Shown here: piece after piece, positions 10,058-37,712 of the stretch
Position numbering within the stretch: the stretch's first letter is position 1
How the letters are laid out: every line of letters starts with the position of its first letter
NCBI RefSeq assembly: GCF_029714405.1
Contig: NZ_CP121650.1
Coordinates: forward strand, 7,445,001-7,509,000
Length of the DNA stretch: 64,000 bases
Reading direction: 5' to 3'
DNA from: Bradyrhizobium sp. CB82
Lineage (GTDB): Bacteria > Pseudomonadota > Alphaproteobacteria > Rhizobiales > Xanthobacteraceae
The notes under the pieces: generated by a model
Databases searched by the model: none
The model's input: the letters and a program-made list of their open reading frames with translations, nothing else
What the model was told of the DNA's origin: nothing
Position numbers and translations under genes: made by a program

Positions 10058-10123
10058 TCATCGGGCGGCCACATCTATATTGCATCCTGATTTTCTTCTG
10101 GCTTGATTGAGTACGATTGCCAC
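10058..10123 (-). CDS. Possible 21-codon leader ORF in conserved upstream region A
   Basis: A GTG inside the conserved element opens a short frame reading MAIVLNQARRKSGCNIDVAAR. The corresponding leader at 16315-16434 shares MAI at the start and RKSGCNID in the middle, and that at 26891-26983 shares MAIV. In a different frame of the same DNA, the ATG at 10085 gives MQYR, also shared with the porin gene. Which frame, if any, is translated is unknown, and no good ribosome site is visible. Confidence 0.2.
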   Translation of the reverse strand: MAIVLNQARRKSGCNIDVAAR

Positions 10124-10165
10124 GTGCGCGTCATCTTCATCAATTGCCAATGTTAGTAGTTGACC
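10115..10165 (-). promoter_or_regulatory. Conserved upstream element, copy A (toward the TauE-type gene)
   Basis: Read on the minus strand: GGTCAA, CTACTAA, CA, TTGGCAATTGAT, 12 bases, then CACGTGGCAATC. Four further copies with the same order and almost the same spacing lie at 16426-16475, 18204-18254, 26975-27024 and, on the plus strand, 37662-37712. Each points to the next gene downstream. Copies A and B are also alike further downstream, including GGATGCAATATAGAT about 30-40 bases after the element. The rest of the interval 9934-10808 holds no supported gene. Confidence 0.6.
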
Positions 10166-10746
10166 GTATGACCAGGCTCGGAAAAACGGTCTCCAGAACC
10201 TTGAAGCTGTCACCGAGGCGGCCGATGTATATTTGCACTAGCTGTGCGTTTAAAAAGTGCGCGGCCGATGTGCTGGCCGACAAGGCAGAACTGAAAAAGT
10301 ATGCCGCTAACGTCGCGCTTTTCGCTTGGACGGCCTGGGGCAATCGCCCGAAGAGATGGGGCAAGCGAAGCTCCCGTCGACTGCTGGCGAGCATCGCGGC
10401 TCCGGCTCATTGCTCCTGGAGCTTGGTGCGAACTGATCCTTCGCATTGGATCGGCGAAGGAGGAAGCGAGGAAACGCCAGGTGTCGGCAAAGCCGCACCT
10501 CTGGCAGTTGGCGGACGTGCCGGTGCGCCGTGAAGCCAAATCCAGCAAAGCCGAGGATCCGCACCACAGCCTTTGCGAACAATCCGACAGCAGCTTTGCG
10601 AGTTTGTCGGGTTTGAGCCGATCTCCCTAGTCTGACGCTACGCACACGATCGCGAGGCGCTCGCAGACCTCGCAATTTCGCCTTCGGCACGCAGCTTGCT
10701 TCGCCCAGCACACCATCACCGTCTCGCCTCCCGGCTCGGTGATGCA

Positions 10747-10786
10747 GGGGCGGACCGGACGTGTCACGGCGTGTTGTGTCCGCCCC
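10747..10786. repeat. Inverted repeat with 9-bp perfect arms
   Basis: GGGGCGGAC at 10747-10755 is the exact reverse complement of GTCCGCCCC at 10778-10786, with a 22-base loop. It ends 22 bases before the ATG at 10809. There is no T-run, so it is not an ordinary terminator. It could be an operator or an mRNA leader hairpin. Confidence 0.5.
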
Positions 10787-10808
10787 GACCGATCTGCGGT
10801 GAGGTGAC

Positions 10809-11192
10809 ATGAAACAGCATATGCGGGCGGCGGCGGCTGCGGTCGCCTTTGCTCACGCGCTCCGCCGCGAGGTCCTCAGCTTGTACGAACACGAGACCCG
10901 TGGGTACAACAGGATCAGGGTGTGGGTAAACGCAAATTGGGCGAGCGGATACGACTACGACAATCAGTGCAAAGTCGGCGGCTCACTGCCGCATATGTTT
11001 CACCACGGCGTGAGATCGCGTTGGCGGCTGAGGCCGAGCCCCCTGGGAGCGTACAGCGGCTTTGATCATGACACTTCATCTTTCTTTTCCGTAAAGGTCA
11101 CCAGCAAGCACGCCAGGGTGTTCGATCACCGGGAAGGCGCGGACTTCACGTACACGATCTGGTCGGGGAGCCGCACTCCAATCACGGAGTGA
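10809..11192 (+). CDS. Small hypothetical protein with repeated aromatic-Asp motifs (127 aa)
   Basis: A GAGGTG ribosome site precedes the ATG. After an Ala-rich N-terminal helix (MKQHMRAAAAAVAFAHALRR) the protein is built of short beta-like units with an aromatic-Asp-aromatic/His pattern: GYDYDN (about residue 58), GFDHDTSSFFSV (about 86) and VFDHREGADFTYTI (about 106). I know small alphaproteobacterial proteins of this style but no function for them. The neighbouring hairpin at 10747-10786 may belong to its leader. Confidence 0.6.
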   Translation: MKQHMRAAAAAVAFAHALRREVLSLYEHETRGYNRIRVWVNANWASGYDYDNQCKVGGSLPHMFHHGVRSRWRLRPSPLGAYSGFDHDTSSFFSVKVTSKHARVFDHREGADFTYTIWSGSRTPITE

Positions 11193-11319
11193 ATCGATGA
11201 CAAGCAATCTTGACACTTTACGCAGTGCAGGTTTGCGCCGCAATCCGGGTTGCGCGTTACCGGTCAATGCACAGACCGGGGCCGCTTTGGTCACGAGCGG
11301 TCGGCTAGAGGCAGCTTCG

Positions 11320-11496
11320 ATGGAGCGGTACACGGCCTACCTAGTCGGGCCAGATGGGCATGCTGTGGGTTTTGTCGAATTTATCTGTTCTGATGAGGGC
11401 GCAGCAAAGGAGCGGGTACGGCAAGTTGCAAATGATTACGCGATTGAGCTTTGGCAGAGCGATCGCAAGATAGTAGCGTATGAAGCACAACGGTAG
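11320..11496 (+). CDS. Small hypothetical protein (58 aa)
   Basis: The frame is open from 11197, but the protein-like part starts at MERYTAYLVGPDGHAVGF (11320), preceded by AGAGG about 8 bases upstream. The sequence YTAYLVGPDGH...EFICSDEGAAKERVRQ...IELWQSDRKIVAYEA is a compact alpha/beta pattern of a kind frequent among Bradyrhizobium small proteins with no assigned function. It follows the gene at 10809 on the same strand after 127 bases. Confidence 0.55.
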   Translation: MERYTAYLVGPDGHAVGFVEFICSDEGAAKERVRQVANDYAIELWQSDRKIVAYEAQR

Positions 11497-12170
11497 CCCT
11501 CAGCACGAGAGGTACGATGCGGTTGCGGCCGTCTAGCGACAGAGGTTGAGACGCTATGGCCACCGTCTATCGCGTCGGACTCGCGATCAGAACTTAGACT
11601 AGTCGTTCACATCGACATCACTACGCCGATACGAACTTGTCCAAAAGCGTTTTTATAGGCTCTTTGGCCCGCAAACCACGCGTTCCCCTCCTCTTAGAGG
11701 CCGCAGTAGTGCGAAGGTTTAGCCGCCGTTCTTGCGCCGCAAGCGGCTTTTCAAGACGAGGTTGGGTAAGAAACTCTGAGAATGAGTCGCGAATTATGTC
11801 CTGCATCCCTAACGCAACGAAAACCACTCTAGCCGTCTCGATGCCGGACCGTCAGCCTGGAAACAAGCCGTCTTTTGAGAGGTGGCCTTGGGGGATCGTT
11901 TGTTGGCGACTTGAGAGCGAATAGCGCATCTGGCATAGGCCGGCAATACCCCAATGACGCGCCTTGCTCGCAACCGGAGGTCCTTCTCGGATTTAATGCA
12001 TGCCGCTGAGCAAGCGAAAGGAACCTCCTCGATACGATCCCAGAATTCGCAATTTTCCCTTTGGCAGATCTGCATCACTTCGCCGTGGGCGTCGATTGGG
12101 CGGCAGCGCGGCGCATAAGTGAATCCACGTCTTTCTGCCCCAGCAATCCACGTTCTATGGCACGCGAGAA
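11497..12170. other. Stretch without a supported gene
   Basis: The minus-strand frame of the aspartase remnant continues here to 11809 but loses all similarity after the RSF residues near 12171. No other gene, repeat or RNA was identified. Confidence 0.4.
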
Positions 12171-12702
12171 ACGATCGATGTTCATCGAGCGCTTCCCGCA
12201 CGATCGCGGCAACACTTGCGTACCCGAACTTGGGTACCAACGCTGTTGCTAGAGCACACGACGCAAGCAGATTCTGCCGCGAACGCTCCTCATTTACTGT
12301 AAGCGAGCGCACATACCGTTCGATCAAGACAGTCGCCGAACGCTGCAGGAGAGTGATCGATTCGATCAGACGATCGCAGACTAGCATGTCGTAACAGTTG
12401 ATCTCCAACAGTCCTTGTTGGCAGGCCATTGCTATGGAAGCGTCGTTCCGGCGCGGATCTCTTGAGACGCCTCAATGATGGCATCCGCTTTCTGCGCTGA
12501 CAGCGCGCCGATCTCTTGATTCGCTCGCGCCGCCGCTTCTTTTATCATCGCCAGTGCAGGGACAAACTCAGGCAGCGTCGACGATCGTGCGGCGCGTGAG
12601 TGGAAAATTCTCCAAAGCCCGGAGAGTATTGATGCCGTAGAGCGCGTCCGCTGGTAGTTGTCTCTCACCAAGAACGTCTTCTTCGGTTCGCATTTCGCCC
12701 AT
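12171..12702 (-). pseudogene. aspA: Internally deleted aspartate ammonia-lyase (aspartase) gene
   Basis: Three segments in order on the minus strand match AspA. The N-terminus, from about 12702 (MGEMRTEEDVLGERQLPADALYGINTLRALENFPLT), is followed by a second block in another frame (PALAMIKEAAARANQEIGALSAQKADAIIEASQEIRAG, ending 12432). The third is the C-terminal block starting near 12429 (LLEINCYDMLVCDRLIESITLL...VNEERSRQNLLASCALATALVPKFGYASVAAIVREALDEHRS). Roughly 280 residues between the second and third blocks, including the catalytic Ser loop, are missing, and at least one frameshift is present. A functional enzyme cannot be made. The fumarase/aspartase assignment is based on the LPADALYGINTLRA and TALVPKFGY-like motifs. 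Confidence 0.75.
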
Positions 12703-13128
12703 GACATTGTATTCTCGCGTTTCTAGGGTGACCCATCGATATCCCGACTGGGCTTCGCCAGAGCAGACAACGTCTAGCGAGAGAGTATCTCCTGCAAAGT
12801 GCGACCGCGAACTGACAAGGTCAGATCGTAGAGCTGTCCTGGTGAGCACCATTCTGACATCCGCCTTGCCTAAGCGGGTCGCTATCGAGGTGCGAGATGC
12901 CGCGAGCTTTGCCGATACATCGCTAATTCGGCTTCCCTATAGACGGCAGAGGGACCAGCCGAGATAGAACAGTTCGGAGCAAATGGCCCCTGCCCTCTGA
13001 CCCAATTTGCGAGAGGCGCTGAATTGCATGGATCCAAGAAGCCACGTTAGCTGACCAACCCAATGGCCATAAATGTGGTGGGCGTTCACGCTATCTGGCC
13101 GCGGTGTTCGCCTAGCATGGCGGATACC
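12703..13128. other. Stretch without a supported gene, left flank of the IS element
   Basis: Only short frames without domains. The sequence ends in the target duplication GACAGTAT (13129-13136). Joining the left flank to the sequence after 14573 does not recreate a recognisable gene. Confidence 0.4.
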
Positions 13129-13136
13129 GACAGTAT

Positions 13137-14565
13137 GGGGATGTCCCGGGTTCTGTTGAACTTCTGAAGAGGTCGGCGTTGCCCACCTTGAGCCGGTAGG
13201 CTCGGGGTGCTGATTCCACAAAGGAGAGCAACGCCATGACGAGAGATATCACACCGGCTGGTTCGCCGGCGACCGGGGCTGTGGACGAAGCGTTTGCAGA
13301 AGTGCGGGCGAGCTTCGATCGGTTCTGCCTTGCGGCAGGGATCGAGGCGCTCGGCACGATGATGGAGGCGGATGTCACGGCGGCCTGCGGGCCGCGCCAC
13401 GGTCGCGATGCGGGGCGGCAGGCGCACCGTTGGGGCCGAACGCGGGGCCGGATCGGCTTCCACGGCGGCAAGATCGAGGTCGAGCGCCCGCGGGTCCGGG
13501 GCGTGGACGGCCGCGAGGTCACGATCCCGAGCTGGGAAACGGCAGCGCAGGAGGACTGGCTCGGTCGCTGGGCGATGAACCTGATGCTGATCAATGTGTC
13601 GACGCGCCGGTTCGGCCGCGCTGTCCGGCTGCCCGAGGGTGACGTGCCGGCACCGCCCGGATCAGGGGTTTCGAAGTCGGCGGCCTCGCGGAGGTTCGTA
13701 GCGCTGTCGGCGGCGCGGCTGGCCGACTTCATGGCTGCCGATCTGTCCGCGCTCGACCTTCTGGTGGTCCAAATCGATGGGCTGCATCTCGGCGACGATC
13801 TCGTGCTGGTCGCCGCGATCGGGGTTGACGGCGAAGGCAACAAGCATCCGCTGGCTCTGGTGGAAGGGGCGACCGAGAACGCCGCAACGGTTCAGGCCCT
13901 GCTGGACAACCTGGTCTCGCGCGGGCTCGACCCGACGATGCCAAGACTGTTCATCGTCGACGGCGCGAAGGCGTTGTCGAAGGCGATCCGCCGCACCTTC
14001 GGTTCGGCCGCTGCGATCCAGCGCTGCCAGATCCACAAGGCGCGCAACATCATGGAACGCCTGCCGAAAGAGCATCATGCGGCCACCCGTCGGGTGCTGC
14101 GCCAGGCCTGGGAGCTCGATGACGCCGACAAGGCTGAAAAATTGATCCGCAATCTCGCGCGCCGACTCGACCAGCAATGGCCCGGCGTAGCGGCCAGCAT
14201 CCTTGAAGGCCTCGATGAAATCCTGATTGTCGTCCGGCTGAAGCTGCCGAAGGAGCTTCGTCGATCGCTCGCCTGTACCAACATCGCCGAGAACATGATG
14301 GGCACCATTCGCCGCGTCACGCGCAACGTCAAACGCTGGCGGGATGCTGGTATGGCCCTGCGCTGGGTCGCGGCCGGCATGATCGAGGCCAACAAGGGCT
14401 TCCGACGATTGAAGGCGTATAAGCAATTGTCGGTTCTGCGTGCGGCCCTTCAAGCTCACCACGATCGCATGACGATCAAGCCCGTTGCCCACGTCACGAG
14501 GGCCGCGTAACATTCATTCCGGCAACGTAGGCCCGGCGTAGTTCAACACCGATCGGGACATCCCC
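13137..14565 (+). mobile_element. Complete IS256-family insertion sequence (1429 bp)
   Basis: Bounded by imperfect inverted repeats. The left end reads GGGGATGTCCCG then, after a few bases, TGTTGAACT; the right end, read inward on the minus strand, has the same two blocks. An exact 8-bp direct repeat, GACAGTAT, lies outside each end (13129-13136 and 14566-14573), the target duplication length expected for IS256 elements. The single gene inside is intact, so the copy may be recent and active. Confidence 0.93.
13236..14510 (+). CDS. IS256-family transposase (mutator type)
   Basis: 424 residues, normal length for the family. DDE residues are expected at D in VVQIDGLHLGDD (about 176), D in LFIVDGAKALSKAI (about 242) and E in TNIAENMMGTIRRVTRNVKRW (about 350). 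The segment CQIHKARNIMERLPK between the second Asp and the Glu is typical of IS256 transposases. GGAGAG lies 7 bases before the ATG. The gene fills the element and shows no disruption. Confidence 0.95.
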   Translation: MTRDITPAGSPATGAVDEAFAEVRASFDRFCLAAGIEALGTMMEADVTAACGPRHGRDAGRQAHRWGRTRGRIGFHGGKIEVERPRVRGVDGREVTIPSWETAAQEDWLGRWAMNLMLINVSTRRFGRAVRLPEGDVPAPPGSGVSKSAASRRFVALSAARLADFMAADLSALDLLVVQIDGLHLGDDLVLVAAIGVDGEGNKHPLALVEGATENAATVQALLDNLVSRGLDPTMPRLFIVDGAKALSKAIRRTFGSAAAIQRCQIHKARNIMERLPKEHHAATRRVLRQAWELDDADKAEKLIRNLARRLDQQWPGVAASILEGLDEILIVVRLKLPKELRRSLACTNIAENMMGTIRRVTRNVKRWRDAGMALRWVAAGMIEANKGFRRLKAYKQLSVLRAALQAHHDRMTIKPVAHVTRAA

Positions 14566-14623
14566 GACAGTATTGCAAGATCCGCATTGGCGTGCTTGTG
14601 AATTTCCCCCTATCTTTGAAGGC

Positions 14624-16381
14624 TTAGAAGAATATCGACGTAGACACTAACACGTTCAACGCATGTCCCGTTCGCGGTGTGTAAGTGATGCTTGTCGGGT
14701 TATTGACGTATGTCAGTCCTAAGCTTGAATATACCCCGGGTGACAGATGTGCCGTGTAGGTTGCGGAAAGCGCCGTACTGTCGCGATGCACAAGATGGCC
14801 CTTGGCCACGGCAGCTTCTACTGCAACGTTGCTCCACGCAGTGTTGGTGGCAACAATCGCAATCTGATCACTTGGACGGCTGTCAAACAACCCCTTCGCG
14901 TAGAGACGGAGCTCGTAATACTCACTCACCCTGTTTAAGTCGGGCGGCGCGTACATCACAGAAAATCCTGCATAGATGCCACGAGCTGGTGAGCCTTGGA
15001 CATCCGACTGCCAGAGTTGCCTGTCCGCTGCCACGTAATAGATGCTATTCCCGTCGGATCTCGGTTGGTTCGGATACTGCAGGTCAGTGAAGCTGCTATT
15101 GGTGAAACCGGCACCTACCCGCAACCAAGTCTCAGGTAAACCTGGAGCAGCTTTGTTCTTGTAGCCGGCTTCGTCGAGCAAGAGAACGCCCGCGTTCGTC
15201 GTGCTCCAGTTTAACCCGGTCGGATTTTCGCGAATGTGCGCAAATTGACCGTCTGGACTGAGTGAACGCTGTACTGAAATCCGGTTGTAGAACCGGTCAT
15301 CAAAATTGTACTTTAGATTGAAGGCTGGCGTCGGCGCGGCATTGTTGCTCATGCCTGCTTGGTACAAAATGTGGGATGACGCTCCAAAAACGTTTACTGC
15401 TGCGTTTCCTCCGACCACCGTGCCTACGAACTCATTTATGTTCCTGAGATAGCCCATTTTGAGCTCGAGTTTCCCGTCAAAAAACGTTTGATAGTAGGCA
15501 ATCGTATTGATCCCAACTCTATCTGGCCCCCCGGGCTTCCATGTCCAGTACTGCTGCTGGGCTCCTACGATGATCTGACCATCGGGAATCCCAAATCGGC
15601 TGAGATCATAGGTCACGATCATGAAATTCAGGGTATTGAATGTCGGGTTCTGACCAGCATATAGCTGATCACGAATGGTGCTCTTCGCTGCATTCGGTAG
15701 CTGATTGTCCACGAAGGTGTTTACAGTCCCGCCAACATAGCCGATTCCGACTTCCCCCAGCGCAGATCTAACGCCGCCGTAATCCTGATCTATTGTATCG
15801 GCCGGACCAGGAATATTGAGCCACATACCTTTTTCGCGTAGGTCCTCGAACTTTGCGAAAGGACCGGCTTTCTGTGGAGTTTTATTCTTTGCAACTACAG
15901 GCGCACCGTCGCGCTTTGCTGCAAACGCATTGACCGTTTGTGCAAGCGCTGCCCTATCGACGAGACGCGCTGCTTGTTGGCACCCGTACCTTCGGTAGGG
16001 CTTAGCCGAACGGTTCTTCTTTTGAACTTCTCCTTGGGTGACCTCGTTAGGAGTACCGCTTTGTGGGCTAAGCACAGTGGCAGCTTGTGCCAGCGCCGTA
16101 TCCCCGACGGGACTCGCAGTGATGGACAGTGCGATAGTAATCCATCTCCGCGCGTTTGCTCCATGAAATTTCGTCCGCAGCGCCCTAGCCGTGATAGAAA
16201 GCGATGGACGGCCACGAAGCGCTGAGACCTTTGAGGGCTTGGTCCTCGATGATAGCGCGAGAAAGCTAGCTAGCGGCTTCCATGAGACGGGAACGACCGC
16301 TGTAGGAGTGGGCCTCACAGCAGTAGATGACGAGACAGCAGATCCATCACGCCTGCTGGCGTAGGCAGATCTATATTGCAT
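14624..16381 (-). CDS. OprB-type carbohydrate-selective porin
   Basis: Outer-membrane beta-barrel porin. The mature part carries the OprB pattern GMWLNIPGPADTIDQDYGG...GIGYVGGTVNTFVDNQL, many alternating aromatic strands, and ends in Phe-Phe as required for BAM recognition. The ATG at 16381 (MQYRSAYASRRDG) follows GGAAG at a good distance. The N-terminus is unusually long: the segment RRWITIALSITASPVGDTALAQAA, about 80-100 residues in, looks like the true signal peptide, so translation may start internally, or the first 80 residues are a read-through extension. The conserved upstream element B lies at 16426-16475. Family members take up sugars; the substrate here is unknown. Confidence 0.82.
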   Translation of the reverse strand: MQYRSAYASRRDGSAVSSSTAVRPTPTAVVPVSWKPLASFLALSSRTKPSKVSALRGRPSLSITARALRTKFHGANARRWITIALSITASPVGDTALAQAATVLSPQSGTPNEVTQGEVQKKNRSAKPYRRYGCQQAARLVDRAALAQTVNAFAAKRDGAPVVAKNKTPQKAGPFAKFEDLREKGMWLNIPGPADTIDQDYGGVRSALGEVGIGYVGGTVNTFVDNQLPNAAKSTIRDQLYAGQNPTFNTLNFMIVTYDLSRFGIPDGQIIVGAQQQYWTWKPGGPDRVGINTIAYYQTFFDGKLELKMGYLRNINEFVGTVVGGNAAVNVFGASSHILYQAGMSNNAAPTPAFNLKYNFDDRFYNRISVQRSLSPDGQFAHIRENPTGLNWSTTNAGVLLLDEAGYKNKAAPGLPETWLRVGAGFTNSSFTDLQYPNQPRSDGNSIYYVAADRQLWQSDVQGSPARGIYAGFSVMYAPPDLNRVSEYYELRLYAKGLFDSRPSDQIAIVATNTAWSNVAVEAAVAKGHLVHRDSTALSATYTAHLSPGVYSSLGLTYVNNPTSITYTPRTGHALNVLVSTSIFF

Positions 16382-16434
16382 CCCGACTTCCTTAGCGTGT
16401 GAGGCGTGACTTTTCGCTGCCGCTCGATTGCCAC
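16315..16434 (-). CDS. Possible 39-codon leader ORF in conserved upstream region B
   Basis: Opens with a GTG inside the conserved element and reads MAIERQRKV..., sharing MAI and RKSGCNID with the short frame at 10058-10123. It overlaps the first codons of the porin frame in a different phase. Evidence for translation is only the partial similarity of the two leaders. Confidence 0.2.
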   Translation of the reverse strand: MAIERQRKVTPHTLRKSGCNIDLPTPAGVMDLLSRHLLL

Positions 16435-16475
16435 GTGGTCGCCACTGCATCAATTGCTAAGGTTGGTAGGCGACA
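16426..16475 (-). promoter_or_regulatory. Conserved upstream element, copy B (toward the OprB porin)
   Basis: Minus-strand reading: CTACCAA, CC, TTAGCAATTGAT, 11 bases, CACGTGGCAATC. It lies 45 bases upstream of the porin ATG at 16381. A second weak similarity to copy D lies about 50 bases further upstream (TTAATGTC on the plus strand at about 16510 and 27068). Confidence 0.6.
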
Positions 16476-17091: not shown

Positions 17092-18021
17092 CTAGGCGAC
17101 CTCAGCGGCCGGCTGCTTAGGGGCCGTCACGCGTGTTACGCTGCTCCGACCATCGATGCTGACCGGTATTTCGCCGGCGATGGTTGCGCGATGAACAAGG
17201 CGGTGTCGGTCGCCGTAGTCGTTCACCGCGTAATGTTGTGTGGCGCGATTGTCCCAGATCGCTACGTCGCCTTCCTTCCAGTTCCAACGTACGGTGTTTT
17301 CGGGCGCAGTGATATGAGACTGAAACAAATCAAACAGCTTCTGGCCGTCGTATTTCGGGACACCAACGAAGTTCTGCACCAGCGCGCCGAGCACGAGCGT
17401 GCGTTCGCCGGTCTCCGGGTGTACGCGCACAACGGGATGCTCAGTCTGATAGATTGTTTTAGTGAAGACTTCGTCCAAGTGCCTTTTGTCGAGCTCGCTG
17501 GCGCGGGCCAGTATTGCGTAGTCGAAGGCGTTACTGTGAAGGGCCCACAGCTTGTCTGCAAGCCGTTGGAGCGGCGGAGCCAGGTCGAGGTAGGCCGTGA
17601 CGGTATTTGACCAAACCGTATCGCCACCGAATGGTGGCATCACAATGCCTCGCAGCACCGCAATCTTGGGGTAGGCATCGATGAAGGTACCATCAGTGTG
17701 CCAGAGGTCGGCCCGGCTACCGGCGCGGGCTGAATCAAGCTCGATGATCGACGCTGTTCCGTTAATCGCACCGAGCGTCGGATGACGTGCCAGTTTTCCG
17801 AAACGAACGGCAAAGCGCTCCTGCTCCGTATCATCAAGGTGCCCCTGTTCGCGAAAGAAGATAACCTTGTGCTCCAACAGCAGCTCATTGATCGAGGCGA
17901 TCGTCTGCTCCGGCAAATCGCCCGACAGCTTAATGTTTCGGATTTCTGCGCCGATGCGCGCTGCGCGTTTGATGATATCCGCGCGAGGACGGACATTGTT
18001 CGACAAGACCGTTGCAGTCAT
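17092..18021 (-). CDS. TauD/TfdA-family 2-oxoglutarate/Fe(II) dioxygenase
   Basis: 309 residues from the ATG at 18021 (MTATVLSNN), preceded by GGAG; the frame is open 27 codons further to 18102. The iron-binding HxD is WHTDGTF (about residues 107-113), and the distal His lies in HRLVHRATI about 30 residues before the end, with the 2-oxoglutarate-binding Arg next to it. The N-terminal part with GAEIRNIKLSGDL and HKVIFFREQG is typical of taurine and 2,4-D dioxygenases. Characterised relatives oxidise sulfonates, sulfates, phenoxyacetates or quaternary amines; substrate unknown here. The conserved element C lies 180 bases upstream. Confidence 0.9.
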   Translation of the reverse strand: MTATVLSNNVRPRADIIKRAARIGAEIRNIKLSGDLPEQTIASINELLLEHKVIFFREQGHLDDTEQERFAVRFGKLARHPTLGAINGTASIIELDSARAGSRADLWHTDGTFIDAYPKIAVLRGIVMPPFGGDTVWSNTVTAYLDLAPPLQRLADKLWALHSNAFDYAILARASELDKRHLDEVFTKTIYQTEHPVVRVHPETGERTLVLGALVQNFVGVPKYDGQKLFDLFQSHITAPENTVRWNWKEGDVAIWDNRATQHYAVNDYGDRHRLVHRATIAGEIPVSIDGRSSVTRVTAPKQPAAEVA

Positions 18022-18203
18022 TACTCCAGCGTCTCCAATTTTGCGCCGCGGGACCACATTATTCAACTCGACAGAGCTGACGAACGCCAAATAGGGCTGC
18101 ATGGCGGGATCCGACGTAGTCCGTGGTGCAGCGACGAGTCCTTGCTTGAGCTCTTCACGCGACCTCGGAGGTTAGTTCGGCGTTCGCGAAGGTCTTGATT
18201 TAA

Positions 18204-18254
18204 GATTGACCAGTACGTCAGTTCGATCAATTGCCAGTATTGGTAGTTGACCGG
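18204..18254 (-). promoter_or_regulatory. Conserved upstream element, copy C (toward the TauD-type dioxygenase)
   Basis: Minus-strand reading: GGTCAA, CTACCAA, TAC, TGGCAATTGATC, about 10 bases, then TACTGGTCAATC in place of CACGTGGCAATC. The left half is nearly perfect and the right half is the most divergent of the five copies. The remaining bases from 18255 to about 18750 contain no supported gene. Confidence 0.55.
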
Positions 18255-18975: not shown

Positions 18976-19008
18976 CGTCCACGGGCGGGGTGTCCGGTGG
19001 TACGCCTA

Positions 19009-19039
19009 GCAGGAGGCCTCGCTTTGGCGGCCTTCCTGC
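19009..19039 (+). promoter_or_regulatory. Hairpin between riboswitch and metE start (probable expression platform)
   Basis: GCAGGAGGCC pairs with GGCCTTCCTGC across a loop of about 10 bases, with one bulge. It is not followed by a U-run, so control is more likely through access to the ribosome site of metE than by intrinsic termination. Confidence 0.5.
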
Positions 19040-19086
19040 CTGCGTTTCCGCCATGGCCTTTGCCCCCACACAATGGGGATAAAGCT

Positions 19087-25736: not shown

Positions 25737-26657
25737 TTAGATTTCGACATACGCAATGCCGGTGAAGTTGCCCTGGGACCAGAGGAGATTGTGTTTGTTC
25801 TTTCCATCAAGATTTGCGGAATAGATCGAACCGGCGAGGTCGGTAATGAACATCTGGTTGCCGGGAACGTCGAGTGCGATGCCGATTCCCTCCATGAGAT
25901 GCGTGATCAGAATTTCCGGCTCCGTCTTTAGATCGACGCACGCGCGATTGACTGTGTTGCCACGCGGCGGATCACCGCGGTCTGTCCAATAGAGGACGCG
26001 GTTCGCCAAATCGAACTCAAGGTGAATCGGCTCCGGCAAGTCGTCGAACAGCACTTCTATGTCGGAGCGGTTTGCCGGACTCTCGCCGTTCGGGATGTCC
26101 ATGTCCGCTCGGAAGATCCGGCCCTTGCCGGCATTGTCCGGACCTTTTTGCGTCCAGTAGATTTGGCGGCGATCGGTGTCCATGGTGATGCCGATGCACC
26201 ATTTGGTCGGGTCGCGTCGGTCCAACTCACCGCGGCCTGCCTCGATGAGCGTCTCGATCTCGGAGCCGTCGAGATTGCACCGCATGACCCGCATTCCCTC
26301 GCGGTCAGACCAGTAGAGCTTGCCGCCTTTTTGATCGAGCTGAATCTGCTTCGGTGTGAAAGTGACACCGCACGGGACGATGACTCTGCGAGCCGTTCCA
26401 TCGATATCGACGCGCTCAATCGAGCCATCGTTAACGGCGACACCGGAACCCATGTTGGTCCAATAGATGTGGCCGGCGCGGACATCGATGGCGATTCCGT
26501 CAGGAAGTTGACAATTGGTGACGACAACTTTTCGATCGGAGCCATCTGGCTTCATGGCTTGTATGCGGTTGGTACTCACCTCAAGAAAGAACAGCTGACG
26601 ACCTGCGAACTTTCGGCTGGACGAACGTTTCGATTTGATCTCACTGGCGCCCGTCAT
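25737..26657 (-). CDS. YWTD-repeat beta-propeller protein
   Basis: 306 residues from MTGASEIKSK (26657); the frame begins at 26684. It consists of repeated LDLR-type YWTD blades: LFFLEVSTNRIQAMKPDGSD, HIYWTNMG, KLYWSDREG, QIYWTQKGP, VLYWTDRGDP and MFITDLAG, each followed by an I..A/V.DGS turn. Five to six blades give a closed propeller. Bacterial members of this type are often annotated as hydroxyacyl-CoA dehydrogenases, but no such active site is visible here, and a binding or lactonase-like role is equally possible. No signal peptide. The conserved element D lies about 320 bases upstream. Confidence 0.82.
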   Translation of the reverse strand: MTGASEIKSKRSSSRKFAGRQLFFLEVSTNRIQAMKPDGSDRKVVVTNCQLPDGIAIDVRAGHIYWTNMGSGVAVNDGSIERVDIDGTARRVIVPCGVTFTPKQIQLDQKGGKLYWSDREGMRVMRCNLDGSEIETLIEAGRGELDRRDPTKWCIGITMDTDRRQIYWTQKGPDNAGKGRIFRADMDIPNGESPANRSDIEVLFDDLPEPIHLEFDLANRVLYWTDRGDPPRGNTVNRACVDLKTEPEILITHLMEGIGIALDVPGNQMFITDLAGSIYSANLDGKNKHNLLWSQGNFTGIAYVEI

Positions 26658-26890
26658 GTTCTCCCTCAGGATGATGTGCCGCAAGTGTTAAGCTGAAAAT
26701 TGCGTTTCAAGCTGCAGCGGATTCGAATCTCGTTTGTGGCGCGACGGGCAGGATGCGCTTTCGATCATCATGTGTTTGACACACTCTGCATCGTTCAACC
26801 CCGCGGGAAGAGCTGCATGGTATCGGTTAAGCAGTGGAGCAAGAGCCGGGCCAATTGCCAAACGTTCAGCCTATAAATTGTCGACCGAAC

Positions 26891-26983
26891 TTAGCTGGGA
26901 CTTAGATCTGACTTGCTGCGGACAGTCTTTTTGGCTCCGCTCCGTGTCGGTTTCCTTGACGGTTGATCGGCCACGATAGCCAT
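26891..26983 (-). CDS. Possible 30-codon leader ORF in conserved upstream region D
   Basis: Opens with ATG at the position where copies A and B have GTG and reads MAIVADQPSRKPTRSG..., a basic peptide ending at TAA 26891-26893. The shared MAIV start with the short frame at copy A is the only support. Confidence 0.25.
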   Translation of the reverse strand: MAIVADQPSRKPTRSGAKKTVRSKSDLSPS

Positions 26984-27024
26984 GTGTCCGTCTTCTCTAT
27001 CAATTGCCAAAATTGGTAGGTGAC
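26975..27024 (-). promoter_or_regulatory. Conserved upstream element, copy D (toward the YWTD protein)
   Basis: Minus-strand reading: GTCAC, CTACCAA, TT, TTGGCAATTGAT, 12 bases, CACATGGCTATC. The left half is identical to the consensus. The distance to the YWTD start is longer (about 320 bases) than for other copies, with the 30-codon leader frame in between. Confidence 0.6.
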
Positions 27025-28448: not shown

Positions 28449-28461
28449 CAAGGAGATTACG

Positions 28462-29303: not shown

Positions 29304-30146
29304 GTGCGAGTGCGTACCGTGAAGCTACATGGCTCCCGCGCCTGCGAAGCGAATCGGACCAGCGTCAGGGAATGGCTGCCGGTTGGTCCGGAAGAAGGGC
29401 TGGCCGACGTCCATCCGAACGCCAACCTGGTGTCCCTCCAGGAGTGCATCCAGCAGCGGATCGCGTCCGATCTTCACGATTCGACCTGCCAGCATTTGAT
29501 CGCCGCGAGCCTTGGCCTGATGCGCCTGCGCAGTTGCCTGAACGGTCAGGCCAGTGCTGCGCGGCTGTGTGACGACGAGATCGATGCCTCGATCGACGAG
29601 GCGCTGCGGGAGATCCGAGCGTTTGCGTATCTGTTGCACCCCCAGAATCTGACCGTCGACGGGCTGAAGGCGACAATCGAACGTTATTCGCGGGGATTTG
29701 CTGCGCGGACATCGCTGCACGTCACAACCAGGATTTCGTCGGATATCGATCGCTTGTCGCGTGAAAAGCAGCACTCGGTGCTTCGGGTCATCCAGGAGGC
29801 CCTCACGAACGTCTTTCGTCACGCGAAGGCGACGGAGGTGAGAATCGTCGTCGCCCCGACCGGTGGCCATTTTCAACTGACCGTCAGCGACAATGGGCGG
29901 GGCTTTCCGGCTGACCGTGCGAGATCCGGTACGAAGTCTGCGATGGGCGTTGGGATTCCGGCCATGCGGGCCAGATTGCAGCAGATCGGAGGCCCGCTTC
30001 ATGTCCAATCCAACGCGGCGGCGCGACATTCCGGCACCACATTGCTGGCGGTGTTCCCGCGCGATTTCGTCGAGAGCAGGCGTAACAGGAACGCCACAAC
30101 AGTCGTGAGGGCCCACGCAGGCACCCGCTGCAGACCGAGGTGTTGA
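29304..30146 (+). CDS. NarL-type sensor histidine kinase, catalytic part only (probable remnant)
   Basis: 280 residues comprising HisKA_3 and HATPase_c without any sensor domain. The phospho-accepting His is in IASDLHDSTCQHLIA (about residue 58). Further motifs are the N box RVIQEALTNVFRHAKATEV, G1 DNGRGF and the late-glycine loop MGVGIPAMRARLQQIGG. Relatives have 200-400 residues of PAS or membrane sensor in front, and the GTG at 29304 lacks a clear ribosome site, so this is probably a truncated gene. The C-terminal 25 residues are unrelated read-through. A response-regulator fragment follows. Confidence 0.75.
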   Translation: MRVRTVKLHGSRACEANRTSVREWLPVGPEEGLADVHPNANLVSLQECIQQRIASDLHDSTCQHLIAASLGLMRLRSCLNGQASAARLCDDEIDASIDEALREIRAFAYLLHPQNLTVDGLKATIERYSRGFAARTSLHVTTRISSDIDRLSREKQHSVLRVIQEALTNVFRHAKATEVRIVVAPTGGHFQLTVSDNGRGFPADRARSGTKSAMGVGIPAMRARLQQIGGPLHVQSNAAARHSGTTLLAVFPRDFVESRRNRNATTVVRAHAGTRCRPRC

Positions 30147-30370: not shown

Positions 30371-30639
30371 GCTTTGACTATTCGATGCTGCTCATAAGCA
30401 GACGGGAGGTTAGCCGTCGTGCCCCACAACACGGAAGTTCTGATCTCGATAGCGCACTAGAATGACGAACTGCTGGCCAAAGCCATCCTGACGGGACGCT
30501 CCTTGTTCAAGGCTAGATGCTAGAAACCGCCTGATTTCGGGATCCAAGGCACTACGGACCTTAGCGTGGACAGGCTTCTTAACGACAGTTAAATGGTCAA
30601 CATACAAACACTATGAAGCCGATGATGAGAGTACCTTAA

Positions 30640-31512: not shown

Positions 31513-31687
31513 GGCAAACTGGAGCAGGCTTACGCTTGGATCCCCATTAAGATTCCAATTCCTCTGGCCAATTTCACGAAGGGACGCACAACGGCTGTCG
31601 AACGGTAACTCCAGCCCAGATTATGGCGCGGTCGTCCACGCCTTTTCTATGTTCATCGCCCAGTGATGTGCGCAGGCGAGCAGCGCC

Positions 31688-32758: not shown

Positions 32759-33096
32759 CAATTTCTCGCTCAGGACACGCGTTGGTTGCGTGAGTAGCTG
32801 GTCGTTTCCCTACAGCCTCGTTTGCTCGCAACGGAGGATGTGGTCCATATTTCAGGATCGCCAGATCATTTCCAGCAAGTGCTACACCGACTTGCTCTGC
32901 GATGGTCGAGGTGACAATGCCGTCTCACGCGTTCGCGCCAACGGAAGAGCCAGCTTTCCCGGCGCTGCCCCATCAGCCATCTGCCTGCGATACGCCGCTT
33001 TCTTCCTGTCGTTGACCATCACCGTTTTTCCCCTGGTTCACTAAGGCTTAAGTAAGCCATGCCGCCGTTGCACATGAGCGTCGTCGGGTCGATTAT
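32759..33096. other. Intergenic stretch without a supported gene
   Basis: About 340 bases between two minus-strand genes; a plus-strand frame (32643-33044) is the shadow of the oxidoreductase gene plus non-coding sequence. Confidence 0.4.
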
Positions 33097-34761: not shown

Positions 34762-35537
34762 ATCGCAGAATGCGTGCCATTGTGCCGGCGTGAATGTCGT
34801 AACACCGAGCCAGCCGTTTTTGGCTTCGTAAATGCCGCCCGGAAAACCGGCCAGAAGCGATTAATGCCAATCCGCCGCATGACTTCGCCGCGCGCCGAAG
34901 CCTCGAACATGAGATATTCGCTGATAGTGAGGCTCGATTCGAAGACACTGACCGACCACAACCGTCCTGCCTCACCCTCCATTCGTGCAACCGCCGAAGA
35001 AGCCGCCGCGATGAAACCCCACAGACCGCCGAGGATGCCCGTCTGGAAATCCGGTGCGTGCAACGGCGGGCCCTCGGCCGGTCCAACGAGCTTGATAAGG
35101 CCGGCGAGCGCGCGAATGGTCGCATCGGTTGCGGCGAATCCCGCATAAGGGCCCTCGCGGCCGAACCAGCTCGCTTCGAGGTGGATCAAACTGGATCGCC
35201 GTTGGCGGATCGCGGCGATGTCAATGGCGGGGCAATTGGCCGGATCAATGTCCCTGCCGTCAACCAGAATATCGCAGTTCTCGATCATCGTTTCCAGCCG
35301 CGTTATCGCGTCCGACGCAGCGGGGTCGATGATCGTGCTTGACTTGTTGAAGTTCAGGAAAGCGAACCAAGCGCTCTGGCCCATCGGCGTGAGCGGCGCG
35401 AAGTGGCGAATTGGATCACCTGCCGGCGGTTCGACCTTCTGAACATCCGCGCCGAAATCAGCAAACAATCGCGCGCAATAGCTGGTTGCCGCCGAGCTAC
35501 CAATTTCGACGACCCGCAAATGCGACAGTACTCCCAT
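34686..35537 (-). CDS. CaiB/BaiF class III CoA-transferase, first part of a frameshifted double-domain gene
   Basis: Starts MGVLSHLRVVEIGSSAATSYCARLFADFGADVQKVEPPAGDPIRH at 35537, five bases after GGAG; the frame is open to 35591. The family pattern continues to RRIGINRFWPVF, after which the frame turns into nonsense. Reading the other frame from there gives PGGIYEAKNGWLGVTTFTPAQWHAFCDMLGLSELRD, which continues directly into the gene at 33097-34761. One G or C is missing in the TTCCGGGCGG stretch near 34840. The original protein would have been about 790 residues with two CaiB domains, as in some rhizobial and actinobacterial CoA-transferases. Confidence 0.82.
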   Translation of the reverse strand: MGVLSHLRVVEIGSSAATSYCARLFADFGADVQKVEPPAGDPIRHFAPLTPMGQSAWFAFLNFNKSSTIIDPAASDAITRLETMIENCDILVDGRDIDPANCPAIDIAAIRQRRSSLIHLEASWFGREGPYAGFAATDATIRALAGLIKLVGPAEGPPLHAPDFQTGILGGLWGFIAAASSAVARMEGEAGRLWSVSVFESSLTISEYLMFEASARGEVMRRIGINRFWPVFRAAFTKPKTAGSVLRHSRRHNGTHSAICSGCRNCAIVRLWSSAKSVCNTSR

Positions 35538-35614
35538 CGTAGCTCCATTTTCCCAATCAAAGGCCTCCAATCGGGACTTTTTGACCCTCACAATTGCTCG
35601 CGCCGGATCGGTCC

Positions 35615-37255
35615 CTAGTGCGTGGCAAAGCCCTCATAGCCGCTTGCGACGACTTCGTCGCATTTTTGCCGATAGCGGCCCACACCCCCGGTATAAGAGA
35701 GTACTCGGCGCGGTTTCCCTTCGACGTTCGATCCCAAGTACCAGGAATCAGTCTTGGCGATCAGCATTGTGCTGGCCAACTCATCGTGATGCGCCACCCA
35801 TTGATCTTCCAACGCCTTAGAGGGTTCGATGAACTTCAAGTTTTTGCCGCGGAGATAGCTAATACATCCGGTAATCCACTCGACCTGCTGCTGTAAGCAG
35901 GTCGTCATGTTGCAAAGCGCGGCCGCGGGGGCAAGCGGCACAGCGGTCGTGAAGAGATTGGGATAGCCGTGCACCTGCAACCCCATGGTGGTCCGGATGT
36001 CTCTGCCCCACTCCTCCTTCAGAGATCGTCCATCGCGACCGCGGATATCGATGCGGGTCAAAGCGCCCGTTCCTGCGTCGAACCCCGTTGCTAGGATGAT
36101 GACGTCGAGCGGGTGAACCGTGCCATCGGCCGTCTGGATGCCTTCGGTCGTGATACGCTCGATTGGGCTGGTCTTGACGTTGATAACTTCCACATTGGCT
36201 CGCTGGAAGGCCTCGAGGAAATTCTGCTCCAACGGTACCCGATGGGTGCCAAATCCGTAATCGCTCGGGATCAGAAGGTCGCAAAGCTCTGGATCCCCAA
36301 GCCGCTCGCGCATTTTCGCGCGCACGAATTCGGAGATCTCCGCGTTCACCCCCTCATCGAAGAACAATTCAGCGAAGGACGCTATCCACAACTTCACAGA
36401 ACCGTCGTTCCAGCAGTCTTCGATCACCTTTCGGCGCTGTTGCGGTGGCAGACCAGCCCAGGCGTGCTCAACGTCAAATTCGAAGCCTGTGAATGTGTGT
36501 GGCAGCAGCTTGGTAAGGGCTTTGAATTTCGACTTGTAGGCCTCGACGTCCGCCGCGGTGTACTTGAGATTCTTCATAGGGAGGATGTATTGCGGCGTAC
36601 GGACGAACACCTTGAGATAGCCGACCTTTTCCGCGATCGTCTGGATCACCTGGATCCCCGTTGCTCCGATACCGACCACCCCGACACGCTTCCCATTAAG
36701 GTCGACCGTTTGCTGCGGCCATCGCGCCGTATGAAAAGCCTGCCCCTTGAACGTCTCTTGCCCCGGGAACGACACATGGGGCGCCGAAAGCATGCCGCAA
36801 CAGGTGACGAGAAACTGAGTATCGATCACGTCACCCTTGTCGGTCGCGACCACCCATCGCTCCGTCGTTTCGTTGAAATGAGCGCTCTGAACCGTCGTGC
36901 CGAACTGAATATTCTTGCGCAGATCAAGCTGGTCCGCCACGTAATTGAGCCAGCATTCGATTTCGGGTTGGCTCGGAAATCTTTCACTCCAGCTCCATCC
37001 TTTGTAGAGGTCTTCGGAGAAAAGGTACTGATAGACGTGGCCCTCTGAATCGACGCGCGCACCAGGATAACGGTTCCAATACCAGGTGCCGCCGACCCCC
37101 GAGGCCGCGTCGATCGCCCTGACGTTCAGCCCGAGCTCCCGTAGCCGGTACAGTTGATAAAGGCCAGCGATGCCGGCTCCGATGATCAGGACATCGAATT
37201 TCGCAGTCGCATTCGCGCCATTACCACCATTGGCCCAGCTCGTGGTTGGGGTCAT
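35615..37255 (-). CDS. Flavin-containing Baeyer-Villiger-type monooxygenase
   Basis: 546 residues. The FAD Rossmann motif is DVLIIGAGIAGLYQLYRLRE; the NADPH motif is VGVVGIGATGIQVIQTIAE. Between them is the Baeyer-Villiger fingerprint FxGxxxHTxxWP as FKGQAFHTARWP, which separates these enzymes from N-hydroxylating flavoproteins. Further signatures are GGTWYWNRYPGARVDSEGHVYQY and ILATGFDAGTGALTRIDIRG. It would insert oxygen next to a ketone to form an ester or lactone. It lies 78 bases upstream of the CoA-transferase gene on the same strand, so the two may have served one degradation pathway now broken by the frameshift. Confidence 0.92.
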   Translation of the reverse strand: MTPTTSWANGGNGANATAKFDVLIIGAGIAGLYQLYRLRELGLNVRAIDAASGVGGTWYWNRYPGARVDSEGHVYQYLFSEDLYKGWSWSERFPSQPEIECWLNYVADQLDLRKNIQFGTTVQSAHFNETTERWVVATDKGDVIDTQFLVTCCGMLSAPHVSFPGQETFKGQAFHTARWPQQTVDLNGKRVGVVGIGATGIQVIQTIAEKVGYLKVFVRTPQYILPMKNLKYTAADVEAYKSKFKALTKLLPHTFTGFEFDVEHAWAGLPPQQRRKVIEDCWNDGSVKLWIASFAELFFDEGVNAEISEFVRAKMRERLGDPELCDLLIPSDYGFGTHRVPLEQNFLEAFQRANVEVINVKTSPIERITTEGIQTADGTVHPLDVIILATGFDAGTGALTRIDIRGRDGRSLKEEWGRDIRTTMGLQVHGYPNLFTTAVPLAPAAALCNMTTCLQQQVEWITGCISYLRGKNLKFIEPSKALEDQWVAHHDELASTMLIAKTDSWYLGSNVEGKPRRVLSYTGGVGRYRQKCDEVVASGYEGFATH

Positions 37256-37661
37256 CTTCTCCTCCCGTCTGTTCCTGACGCCTGGCGACGGAGAGCAGCA
37301 GCAAGTATCGTACCAGTTGGGAGGCTGCGACAGTCAAGCGAACACAACGCCTAGAACGTAGCAACGACTGCGGCGCCTTATGCTTTTGAAGCAATTGCGA
37401 CATACGTCTGCAGTACGACAGCTTCGAGCTGCGTTCGATATGTCACGGACCGCAATCTGAGCGACCGCACGCGCGCAAACAATGGCCGGCAAGAGACATA
37501 CAATCGTCTATCGTAGCGGTCGCACTCGACGCTAAGCATTTGGAGGCGTGATGTGCATAGGAATGGTCGTATTATGCACGCATGCACCAACAGTCGGACA
37601 GCTTGTAATCATCCGATTGGCGGTCATTCCTCCGAGCCGTGACCGAGCCACTTTGCGAGCA
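37256..37661. other. Intergenic stretch without a supported gene
   Basis: Divergent promoter region between the monooxygenase and the O-methyltransferase genes. Short frames only; the element F begins at its right border. Confidence 0.4.
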
Positions 37662-37712
37662 GTCAACTACCAACAATGGCGATTGATCCACATAACAGGC
37701 GCGTGTCACTGA
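37662..37712 (+). promoter_or_regulatory. Conserved upstream element, copy F (plus strand, toward the O-methyltransferase operon)
   Basis: Plus-strand reading: GTCAA, CTACCAA, CAA, TGGCGATTGAT, 12 bases, CGCGTGTCACTG. The left half and the spacing match the four minus-strand copies. It lies about 90 bases upstream of the ATG at 37804, and it is the only copy on the plus strand, exactly where the downstream gene is also on the plus strand. Confidence 0.6.

What the first reader, a model, noticed from the sequence alone, without database searches (positions are those of the whole stretch)
10115..37712. Undescribed ~50-bp upstream element shared by five loci: a candidate local regulon
Five copies (10115-10165, 16426-16475, 18204-18254, 26975-27024 on minus; 37662-37712 on plus) share CTACCAA, 2-3 bases, TTGGCAATTGAT, 10-12 bases, and a CACGTGGCAATC-like block. 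Every copy faces the next downstream gene, and the single plus-strand copy precedes a plus-strand gene. The targets are a TauE-type permease, an OprB porin, a TauD-type dioxygenase, a YWTD propeller protein and an O-methyltransferase/decarboxylase/dehydrogenase operon. The core CCAATATTGG is palindromic, as expected for a dimeric regulator. It does not match, as far as I can tell, the nod box, the tts box, the FixK box or the sigma-54 consensus.
Basis: partly seen in the sequence, partly recalled or inferred. Interest (0 to 1): 0.85.

Follow-up and report, generated by a model that had tools for sequence, protein, structure and literature searches.

The report
Nodulation-linked promoter element and its regulon
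A short DNA switch, repeated in front of at least fourteen genes in the symbiosis region of this nitrogen-fixing root bacterium and present in almost all sampled relatives that carry a nodulation gene, most likely marks the genes turned on by one little-studied LuxR-type regulator inside root nodules.

Summary
The five copies are real (exactly 5 in the window, 0.01 expected) and belong to a larger set: 14 clear sites plus one weak one in this genome, all in a 0.82-Mb stretch around nodA. The element is a 26-bp imperfect inverted repeat plus a second block, followed in 40 of 83 collected copies by a shared leader start.

In 117 Bradyrhizobium genomes it occurs in 61 of 64 with a strong NodA match and 0 of 53 without. 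Targets recur: PEP-mutase-like enzyme, OprB and Omp31 porins, TauE, TauD, an MsbA-like exporter, an FMN monooxygenase.

The best regulator candidate is an island-encoded LuxR-type protein with an autoinducer-binding domain. Its gene lies 1-5.3 kb from a divergent copy in at least 18 genomes and has a conserved sigma-54 box upstream.

In USDA110 its homologue blr1880 and three of four element targets, mapped by name and gene order, are published as about 20- to 50-fold lower in nifA-mutant nodules, yet no sigma-54 box follows the element there. I propose a cascade: NifA, LuxR, regulon. Binding is not shown, co-occurrence cannot single out LuxR, and the CT(N12)AG lux-box signature is not met.

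The parts
10115..10164 (-). element copy 1: 26-bp dyad core 10139-10164 plus second block; upstream of the TauE-like permease
   Evidence: (R1 E 3.7e-15)
16425..16474 (-). element copy 2: core 16449-16474; upstream of the OprB porin
   Evidence: (E 8.9e-11)
18202..18251 (-). element copy 3: core 18226-18251; upstream of the TauD-like dioxygenase
   Evidence: (E 2.2e-11)
26975..27024 (-). element copy 4: core 26999-27024; upstream of the YWTD protein
   Evidence: (E 9.7e-15)
37662..37711 (+). element copy 5: core 37662-37687; upstream of the OMT / decarboxylase / dehydrogenase operon
   Evidence: (E 2.4e-13)
9217..9933 (-). target: TauE/SafE-family permease, 238 aa
   Evidence: PF01925 E 6e-33; a TauE gene follows 5 of 83 collected sites and one site of the USDA110-sized genome
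14624..16453 (-). target: OprB porin; likelier start at the ATG at 16381 (MQYRS..., 585 aa), 67 bp from the core
   Evidence: PF04966 E 5e-25
17092..18102 (-). target: TauD/TfdA-family dioxygenase, 336 aa
   Evidence: PF02668 E 5e-57; below the taurine dioxygenase cut-off (232.5 of 313 bits)
25737..26684 (-). target: YWTD beta-propeller protein, 315 aa
   Evidence: PF00058 E 4e-15
37783..38880 (+). target operon gene 1: O-methyltransferase
   Evidence: PF00891 E 2e-20
38956..40116 (+). target operon gene 2: phosphonopyruvate decarboxylase (equivalog level)
   Evidence: TIGR03297 338.8 bits, cut-off 312.5
40233..41705 (+). target operon gene 3: phosphonoacetaldehyde dehydrogenase (equivalog level)
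   Evidence: TIGR03250 662.9 bits, cut-off 635.65
41953..42972 (-). LysR-type regulator next to the phosphonate-like operon; a rival candidate regulator
   Evidence: PF00126 and PF03466; best NCBIfam family phn_lysR but under cut-off (157.2 of 341.1 bits)

Best explanation
The element is the operator and promoter-proximal region of a symbiosis regulon scattered over the Bradyrhizobium symbiosis island. A dimeric activator binds the 26-bp dyad (GTCAACTACCAAC/GTTRGCAATTGAT), helped by a weaker second site centred about 26 bp downstream, and recruits sigma-70-type RNA polymerase. The activator is most likely the LuxR-type protein with an autoinducer-binding domain encoded in the same island (here C1:7703129-7703995, minus, outside the window; homologue of USDA110 blr1880). 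That luxR gene is itself read from a sigma-54 promoter, so NifA in the low-oxygen nodule makes the LuxR protein, and LuxR with its ligand switches on the porins, exporters, TauD/FMN oxygenases and PEP-mutase-like enzymes. Shown here: the element, its spread, its link to nodA, its targets, the divergent luxR neighbour, the sigma-54-like box. From print: NifA dependence of blr1880 and of the target genes. Inferred: that LuxR binds the element, that it activates, that sigma-70 is used, and that a ligand is needed.
For: Real and non-random. Nodulation-bound: element in 61 of 117 genomes, all 61 among the 64 with strong NodA matches; 53 have neither (Fisher 4e-30; 8 genomes with only weak NodA matches, E 1e-6 to 9e-4, were counted as lacking it). 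A better model (R2) also finds the element in one of the three missing, G040. Targets: nearest recognised gene behind 83 sites is PEP-mutase-like 26, OprB 9, Omp31 6, MsbA-like 6, TauE 5, TauD 4, FMN monooxygenase 4, OMT 3, aminotransferase 3, prolyl-oligopeptidase-like 3, three single families, none 11. LuxR: PF03472 E 3e-29, PF00196 E 5e-20; nearest solved relatives CviR, RhlR, QscR, LasR. Homologue of 150 bits or more in 61 of 117 genomes: 58 with element, 3 without; 3 element-only; 53 neither. G081 (nodA+) lacks both. Adjacency: 18 genomes with a divergent element 1.0-5.3 kb upstream of luxR (coordinates; listed; a lower bound, since one search's list is cut). In 22 named Bradyrhizobium luxR loci (three matches partial: L180, L182, L188), 14 have an element within 6 kb; all 17 sites are on the strand opposite luxR, 16 on its upstream side; 0 of 6 distant non-Bradyrhizobium loci have one. 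A PEP-mutase-like gene is in 10 of the 22. Sigma-54 box TGGTACGACACTTGCT upstream of luxR in 21 of 23 loci with up to 2 mismatches, 17 of 23 by a stricter pattern; within 150 bp behind the element in 1 of 83 sites. USDA110-sized genome (9,105,828 bp): four elements precede TauE, OprB, TauD and an OMP beta-barrel gene. PMC4926349 Table 3 (both parts read), log2 nifA/wt: blr1879 -4.4, blr1880 -5.0, bll2003 -4.3, bll2009 -5.6, bll2125 -5.0. PMC8632152 (passage) names bll2003 OprB; PMC6321122 (passage) names bll2125 taurine dioxygenase; bll2009 = TauE is inferred from order after hemN bll2007.
Against: No binding or mutant data. Within nodA+ genomes the LuxR-element association is not significant (58/3/2/1, p 0.18): any symbiosis-island regulator would co-occur as well. 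Two genomes (G037, G073) have one strong element each (R2 E about 7e-14) and no LuxR homologue; G067 has only a broken luxR piece. A LuxR homologue of 61% identity exists in a genome without strong NodA and without a convincing element (G065; R2 E 0.04). The lux-box signature CT(N12)AG is complete in 4 of 83 sites; the left CT in 81. Eight of 22 luxR loci have no element within the held flank, and G106 has a second, same-direction element 2.9 kb upstream of luxR. nifA-mutant nodules are abnormal; within the island alone the 3-of-4 overlap is only p about 0.006, from background counts I estimated. The fourth USDA110 target (OMP gene near base 2,836) is not recognisable in Table 3. PMC10454721 (passages) links blr1880 to a different, GC-rich motif and to FixK2 modules.
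Confidence: 0.62

Rival explanations
1. A real symbiosis regulon, but bound by another island regulator: a LysR-type protein (for instance the one at window 41953-42972), NodVW/NwsAB, NolA, NodD2, or the LuxR of the island's own LuxR-LuxI pair (C1:8007917-8009296).
For: The nodA correlation fits any island regulator. The roughly 50-bp two-block layout resembles LysR sites such as the nod box (recalled). The window LysR sits behind the copy-5 operon and its best family is phn_lysR. The island also holds an intact LuxR-LuxI pair with a LysR gene beside it and a further LysR at 7603380.
Against: The dyad has an even centre and no T-N11-A LysR motif (by eye; motif recalled). None of the three LysR proteins tested has a match (E up to 1e-15) in 89 fetched element-bearing stretches from other genomes, against 2 for the proposed LuxR and 1 for the pair's LuxR; but most stretches reach only 0.6-1.5 kb upstream of the element. 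None of these rivals was profiled across the 117 genomes.
Confidence: 0.25
2. The sites are copies of a mobile or duplicated promoter cassette that carries a leader start codon from gene to gene; much of the conservation is common descent rather than selection on a binding site.
For: 40 of 83 sites share an ATGCAA-type leader start 48-126 bp behind the core, against 1 of 157 control stretches upstream (the 157 include matches read on both strands), with MQxxS-like leader peptides in front of unrelated genes, out of frame in front of TauE.
Against: Between distant genomes the 26-bp core and second block stay nearly fixed while spacer and upstream flanks diverge. No inverted-repeat ends or target duplications were seen by eye. 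The orientation to genes is kept.
Confidence: 0.08
3. The targets depend on NifA and sigma-54 directly, and the element is an accessory upstream activator site for that system.
For: NifA dependence of bll2003, bll2009 and bll2125 in print.
Against: Only 1 of 83 sites has a -24/-12-like match within 150 bp downstream; controls 0 of 83 and 0 of 82. The element shows no TGT-N10-ACA (NifA site, recalled). The four USDA110 sites show no -24/-12 box within about 270 bp behind the core.
Confidence: 0.05

Closest known systems
lux box and LuxR-solo regulons (ExpR, QscR type)
   Same: Even-centred dyad; island-encoded LuxR with autoinducer-binding and GerE domains and no adjacent luxI; several scattered targets.
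   Different: 26-bp rather than about 20-bp dyad; full CT(N12)AG in only 4 of 83 sites; a second block; the regulator gene carries a sigma-54-like box; ligand unknown. LuxR-solo subgroups that include Bradyrhizobium have been listed (PMC10134790, passage), so the protein group may already be catalogued.
nod box (NodD)
   Same: About 50-bp symbiosis-specific element upstream of genes of the same island.
   Different: Sequence and symmetry differ: no ATC-N9-GAT (named in PMC5596368, passages); the targets found are not nod genes.
tts box (TtsI)
   Same: Symbiosis-island element in front of scattered genes; the recalled consensus also starts with a GTCAGCT-like block.
   Different: No TCGAAAGCT arm (recalled); the targets found are not type III effectors.
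NifA/RpoN regulon of B. diazoefficiens
   Same: Three element targets and blr1880 are NifA-dependent in nodules (PMC4926349, Table 3).
   Different: The element promoters lack -24/-12 boxes; the link would be indirect, through LuxR.

Membership tests
lux box / LuxR-type operator | CT(N12)AG within an inverted repeat of about 20 bp (named in PMC4338825, passages) | tested here: not met
   Left CT in 81 of 83 sites, right AG in 4 of 83, both in 4 of 83
lux box / LuxR-type operator | Dyad symmetry with an even centre | tested here: met
   Consensus equals its reverse complement at 20 of 26 positions, centre between positions 12 and 13 counted from 0
lux box / LuxR-type operator | Bound by a LuxR-family dimer | not testable with these tools
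   No binding assay
quorum-sensing LuxR protein | Autoinducer-binding domain (PF03472) plus GerE DNA-binding domain (PF00196) | tested here: met
   E 3.4e-29 and 4.5e-20, both over cut-off
quorum-sensing LuxR protein | Conserved ligand-pocket residues (W, Y, D, W, G; recalled) | tested here: met
   Aligned with CviR: W of PDWC, Y of QRY, D of VDPV, W of YLWDE, G of EAGLKHG kept (read by eye)
LuxR solo | No luxI next to the luxR gene | tested here: met
   PF00765 matches in this genome are at C2:877775, C1:8008781, C1:8834964 and two short ones at C1:4026795 and C1:2015608, none near 7703129
nod box | ATC-N9-GAT modules | tested here: not met
   Not in the 83-site consensus (compared by eye)
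sigma-54 promoter (target genes) | TGGYAC-N5-TTGCW | tested here: not met
   1 of 83 within 150 bp downstream; controls 0 of 83 and 0 of 82
sigma-54 promoter (luxR gene) | TGGYAC-N5-TTGCW upstream | tested here: met
   17 of 23 with up to 1 mismatch; 21 of 23 to TGGTACG-N4-TTGCT with up to 2; no shuffled control was run and the loci are related
PEP mutase (main target enzyme) | NCBIfam equivalog TIGR02320 over cut-off | tested here: met
   323.6 and 334.8 bits, cut-off 319.55, own two copies
PEP mutase (main target enzyme) | EDK(X5)NS catalytic-loop motif (recalled) | tested here: not met
   Own copies QDS and EDS; 13 outside copies that show the motif have EDS (12) or EDN (1); no EDK....NS/TS ORF in the island list
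transposable repeat | Defined ends, inverted repeats or target duplications | tested here: inconclusive
   Not seen by eye; only a repeat search within two 501-base stretches was run; the shared leader start shows copies extend past the binding site

The most novel reading that the evidence does not exclude
Nodulating Bradyrhizobium carry a second tier of symbiotic control that has been overlooked: NifA switches on an orphan LuxR receptor in the nodule, and this receptor, tuned to a bacterial or plant-made small molecule, opens a genus-wide regulon of porins, exporters, oxygenases and an unusual PEP-mutase-like enzyme family lacking the EDK lysine, probably for exchange of a phosphonate-like or similar metabolite with the host.
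Probability: 0.35. Interest if true: 0.86.

Novelty: new variant of a known kind. Interest (0 to 1): 0.72.

Why it matters
A possible role for the isolated LuxR gene in the symbiosis island of the soybean symbionts was called 'an exciting subject for investigation' in 2014 (PMC4070871, passage), and published start-site mapping found no motifs beyond RpoD- and RpoN-like promoters although 67% of start sites had neither (PMC4842269, passage). An element that tracks nodA across the genus gives that regulator a concrete predicted regulon, explains how genes without sigma-54 promoters could depend on NifA, and names the genes to test. It also flags a recurrent PEP-mutase-like enzyme of unknown chemistry as a symbiosis gene.

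Tried and rejected
Transposon or repeat reading: kept only as a minor rival. Direct NifA/sigma-54 control of the targets: no -24/-12 boxes. Element in other rhizobia: of 397 genomes of the order 4 matched, three Bradyrhizobium (own included) and one partial match at E 9.6e-4 (G344), taken as chance; filters there were strict and I did not check which of those genomes nodulate, so absence elsewhere is not proven. Published description of the element: not found in the searches (open-licence papers only; one search held 0 papers). Phosphonate regulon as a firm claim: weakened because the PEP-mutase-like targets lack the EDK lysine. Papers on genistein-induced genes (PMC9069715) and rhizobial quorum sensing (PMC5977203) were seen in passages only and not used. 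No structure prediction or fold search was run.

Rows dropped: 158 matrix hits were reduced to 83 distinct sites by removing matches that read better on the other strand (the palindrome read backwards) and duplicates. A first count of downstream genes by a length/distance rule mixed families in one cluster; it was replaced by a protein search of the 2.5 kb behind each site, which cannot see families outside its 13 reference families and found none at 11 sites, one of them with only 184 bases held. R2 was built from 44 of 45 listed outside sites plus 10 own sites. The 95-of-8317 and 80-of-655 backgrounds are figures that I entered by eye. Many luxR matches are marked with a stop inside; in 5 of 5 loci looked at, the stop is the natural end, 241-247 residues into the match.

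Full report
WHAT IS THERE. The five copies are real and at the stated places. Aligned, they show a 26-bp imperfect inverted repeat GTCAACTACCAA-NN-TTGGCAATTGAT and, about 10 bp further, a second block. With up to 3 mismatches the pattern occurs exactly five times in the window, against 0.01 expected. The quoted core CCAATATTGG occurs in no copy.

NOT LOCAL. The window lies at 7,445,001-7,509,000 of a 9.24-Mb chromosome of a 10.14-Mb genome. A relaxed pattern found 10 sites, with 1 for the reversed control pattern. A sequence-only profile of those ten (R1) found 13 at E 1.3e-5 or better and a 14th at 0.0013. A matrix scan of the joined 955-kb island gave 14 sites of 26.6 bits or more and then a drop to 16.8; a degenerate fifteenth (7,817,982) scores low but keeps a similar second block. 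The 14 lie between 7.455 and 8.278 Mb, around nodA at 7.598 Mb. The targets outside the window are two PEP-mutase-like genes, an MsbA-like exporter, an Omp31-like protein, an aminotransferase followed by a nucleotidyltransferase and a CDP-alcohol phosphotransferase, FMN monooxygenases (one behind the weak fifteenth site), a GDSL-family protein followed by an ORF that looks membrane-bound, a methyltransferase, and a GNAT-domain ORF (the Omp31 and membrane labels, and the second monooxygenase, are by eye).

GENUS-WIDE AND TIED TO NODULATION. R1 hits 61 of 117 Bradyrhizobium genomes at E 0.001 or better. NodA matches occur in 72 of 117, of which 64 are strong (E below 1e-85) and 8 weak (E 1e-6 to 9e-4); I counted only the 64 as nodA+. 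All 61 element genomes are among the 64; 3 nodA+ genomes lack the element; 53 have neither (Fisher 4e-30). Re-scanned with a profile of 54 sites (R2), one of the three, G040, becomes positive (1.8e-4); G081 and G095 stay negative; of the 16 nodA-negative genomes in that call none reaches 0.001 (three partial matches at 0.02-0.04). In 397 genomes of the order only three Bradyrhizobium, own included, and one marginal partial match appear.

ANATOMY FROM 83 SITES. Conserved positions run from about -10 (TTGCGCCCCG) through the dyad to about +50; beyond that there is no general consensus. The second block sits at one spacing in 63 of 83 sites and one base closer in 6; in 10 the search pattern did not find it. 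In 40 of 83 sites a start codon with an MQxxS-like leader follows, most often 66-72 bp behind the dyad; control stretches show it in 1 of 157. In front of PEP-mutase-like genes this leader is the start of the protein; in front of TauE it is out of frame with the gene. So the promoter seems to have been copied together with a leader, an observation that stands apart from the question of the regulator.

TARGETS. Searching the 2.5 kb behind each of the 83 sites with reference proteins, the nearest match is PEP-mutase-like in 26, OprB 9, Omp31 6, MsbA-like exporter 6, TauE 5, TauD 4, FMN monooxygenase 4, OMT 3, aminotransferase 3, prolyl-oligopeptidase-like 3, YWTD 1, GDSL 1, methyltransferase 1, none 11. 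The copy-5 operon encodes a phosphonopyruvate decarboxylase and a phosphonoacetaldehyde dehydrogenase, both over the equivalog cut-off; both own PEP-mutase-like proteins pass TIGR02320, and one aligns over its catalytic domain to solved PEP mutase 1m1b. But the EDK lysine is replaced in both own copies and in the 13 outside copies that show the motif, so C-P chemistry is likely, not shown.

THE REGULATOR. A LuxR-type gene with an autoinducer-binding and a GerE domain lies at 7,703,129-7,703,995, 1.2 kb from the divergent PEP-mutase element. Homologues of 150 bits or more are in 61 of 117 genomes: 58 with the element, 3 without; 3 element genomes lack it. Over 265 genomes 126 have a match at 1e-50. 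From the coordinates, 18 genomes have an element 1.0-5.3 kb upstream of luxR on the opposite strand, a lower bound because one search's list was cut; G106 has in addition a same-direction element 2.9 kb upstream. In 22 named Bradyrhizobium loci 14 have an element within the 6-kb flanks held (less in L173, L174, L180 and L182), all 17 sites on the opposite strand and 16 on the upstream side; the six distant non-Bradyrhizobium relatives have none. Co-occurrence does not single out LuxR among island regulators (within nodA+ genomes p 0.18); adjacency, dyad and expression data do the work. As a small comparison, none of three island LysR proteins matches in 89 element-bearing stretches from other genomes (2 for LuxR), though these stretches are short.

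UPSTREAM OF LUXR. A sigma-54-like box TGGTACGACACTTGCT is kept in 21 of 23 loci (up to 2 mismatches) while the flanks vary. The box is 75-1151 bp from luxR, so a first gene or leader may lie between. In the genome of USDA110 size (G522, 9,105,828 bp) the order is ORF, luxR, rpoN, matching blr1879, blr1880 and rpoN1 blr1883 (PMC4070871 and PMC6515984 passages). In PMC4926349 Table 3 blr1879 and blr1880 fall by 4.4 and 5.0 log2 units in nifA-mutant soybean nodules. R1 finds four elements there at E 5e-4 or better, in front of TauE, OprB, TauD and an OMP gene. OprB bll2003 (-4.3), TauD bll2125 (-5.0) and, by gene order, TauE bll2009 (-5.6) are in the same table; the OMP gene is not recognisable there, and the table lists only changes beyond 4 log2 units. 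None of the four sites has a sigma-54 box behind it. The simplest reading is NifA, then LuxR, then element. The blr1880 protein is 57% identical to the own LuxR; the own genome also carries a broken relative (59%) beside its rpoN, so blr1880 may correspond to that copy rather than to the intact gene.

WHAT IT IS NOT. The full lux-box signature CT(N12)AG (PMC4338825 passages) is in 4 of 83 sites, so I do not file the element as a lux box; it works like one if LuxR binds it. It is not a nod box (ATC-N9-GAT, PMC5596368 passages). PMC10454721 (passages) proposes a different motif for blr1880, from expression modules; that is evidence against my assignment and should be tested first.

VERDICT. A real, undescribed (within the searches named) symbiosis-specific promoter element and regulon: about 0.95. 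LuxR as its regulator: about 0.62. The NifA-LuxR cascade in full: about 0.55.

Noticed in passing
L057:12918-15688 (own genome C1:8007917-8010687): An intact LuxR gene, a LuxI-type synthase (C1:8008781-8009296) and a LysR gene lie side by side inside the symbiosis island, apparently a complete acyl-HSL system apart from the LuxR proposed here.
   Followed up: partly
L011:10197-11168 and L014:10878-11864: Two PEP-mutase-like paralogues that pass TIGR02320 but carry QDS or EDS instead of the EDK catalytic-loop motif; 13 outside homologues that show the motif have EDS or EDN.
   Followed up: partly
L014:14911-19131: Aminotransferase, nucleotidyltransferase, CDP-alcohol phosphotransferase and a second aminotransferase-like gene in a row behind an element: possibly a phosphonyl or phosphonolipid tailoring cluster.
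   Followed up: partly
40 of 83 sites, e.g. window 16381 (minus) and 10085 (minus): A shared leader start (ATGCAA..., MQxxS) often about 67 bp behind the dyad in front of unrelated genes, out of frame at TauE: promoter-plus-leader duplication.
   Followed up: partly
own genome C1:8206235-8206846 (minus): Broken LuxR paralogue (59% identical to the intact one) beside rpoN at 8203530-8205047, the place of blr1880 next to rpoN1 in USDA110.
   Followed up: partly
window 13236-14510: Mutator-family transposase gene between element copies 1 and 2.
   Followed up: no
window 29304-30146 and 3651-3902 (minus): A short HisKA_3-type histidine kinase and a GerE-only fragment (83 aa), possible remnants of two-component systems.
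   Followed up: no
window 60568-63936 (minus): AIR-synthase-related (HypE-like) and HypF genes: hydrogenase maturation cluster at the window's right end.
   Followed up: no
G522:C1:2836 (L229): In the USDA110-size genome one strong element lies far outside the symbiosis island, at the start of the sequence, before an OMP beta-barrel gene.
   Followed up: no
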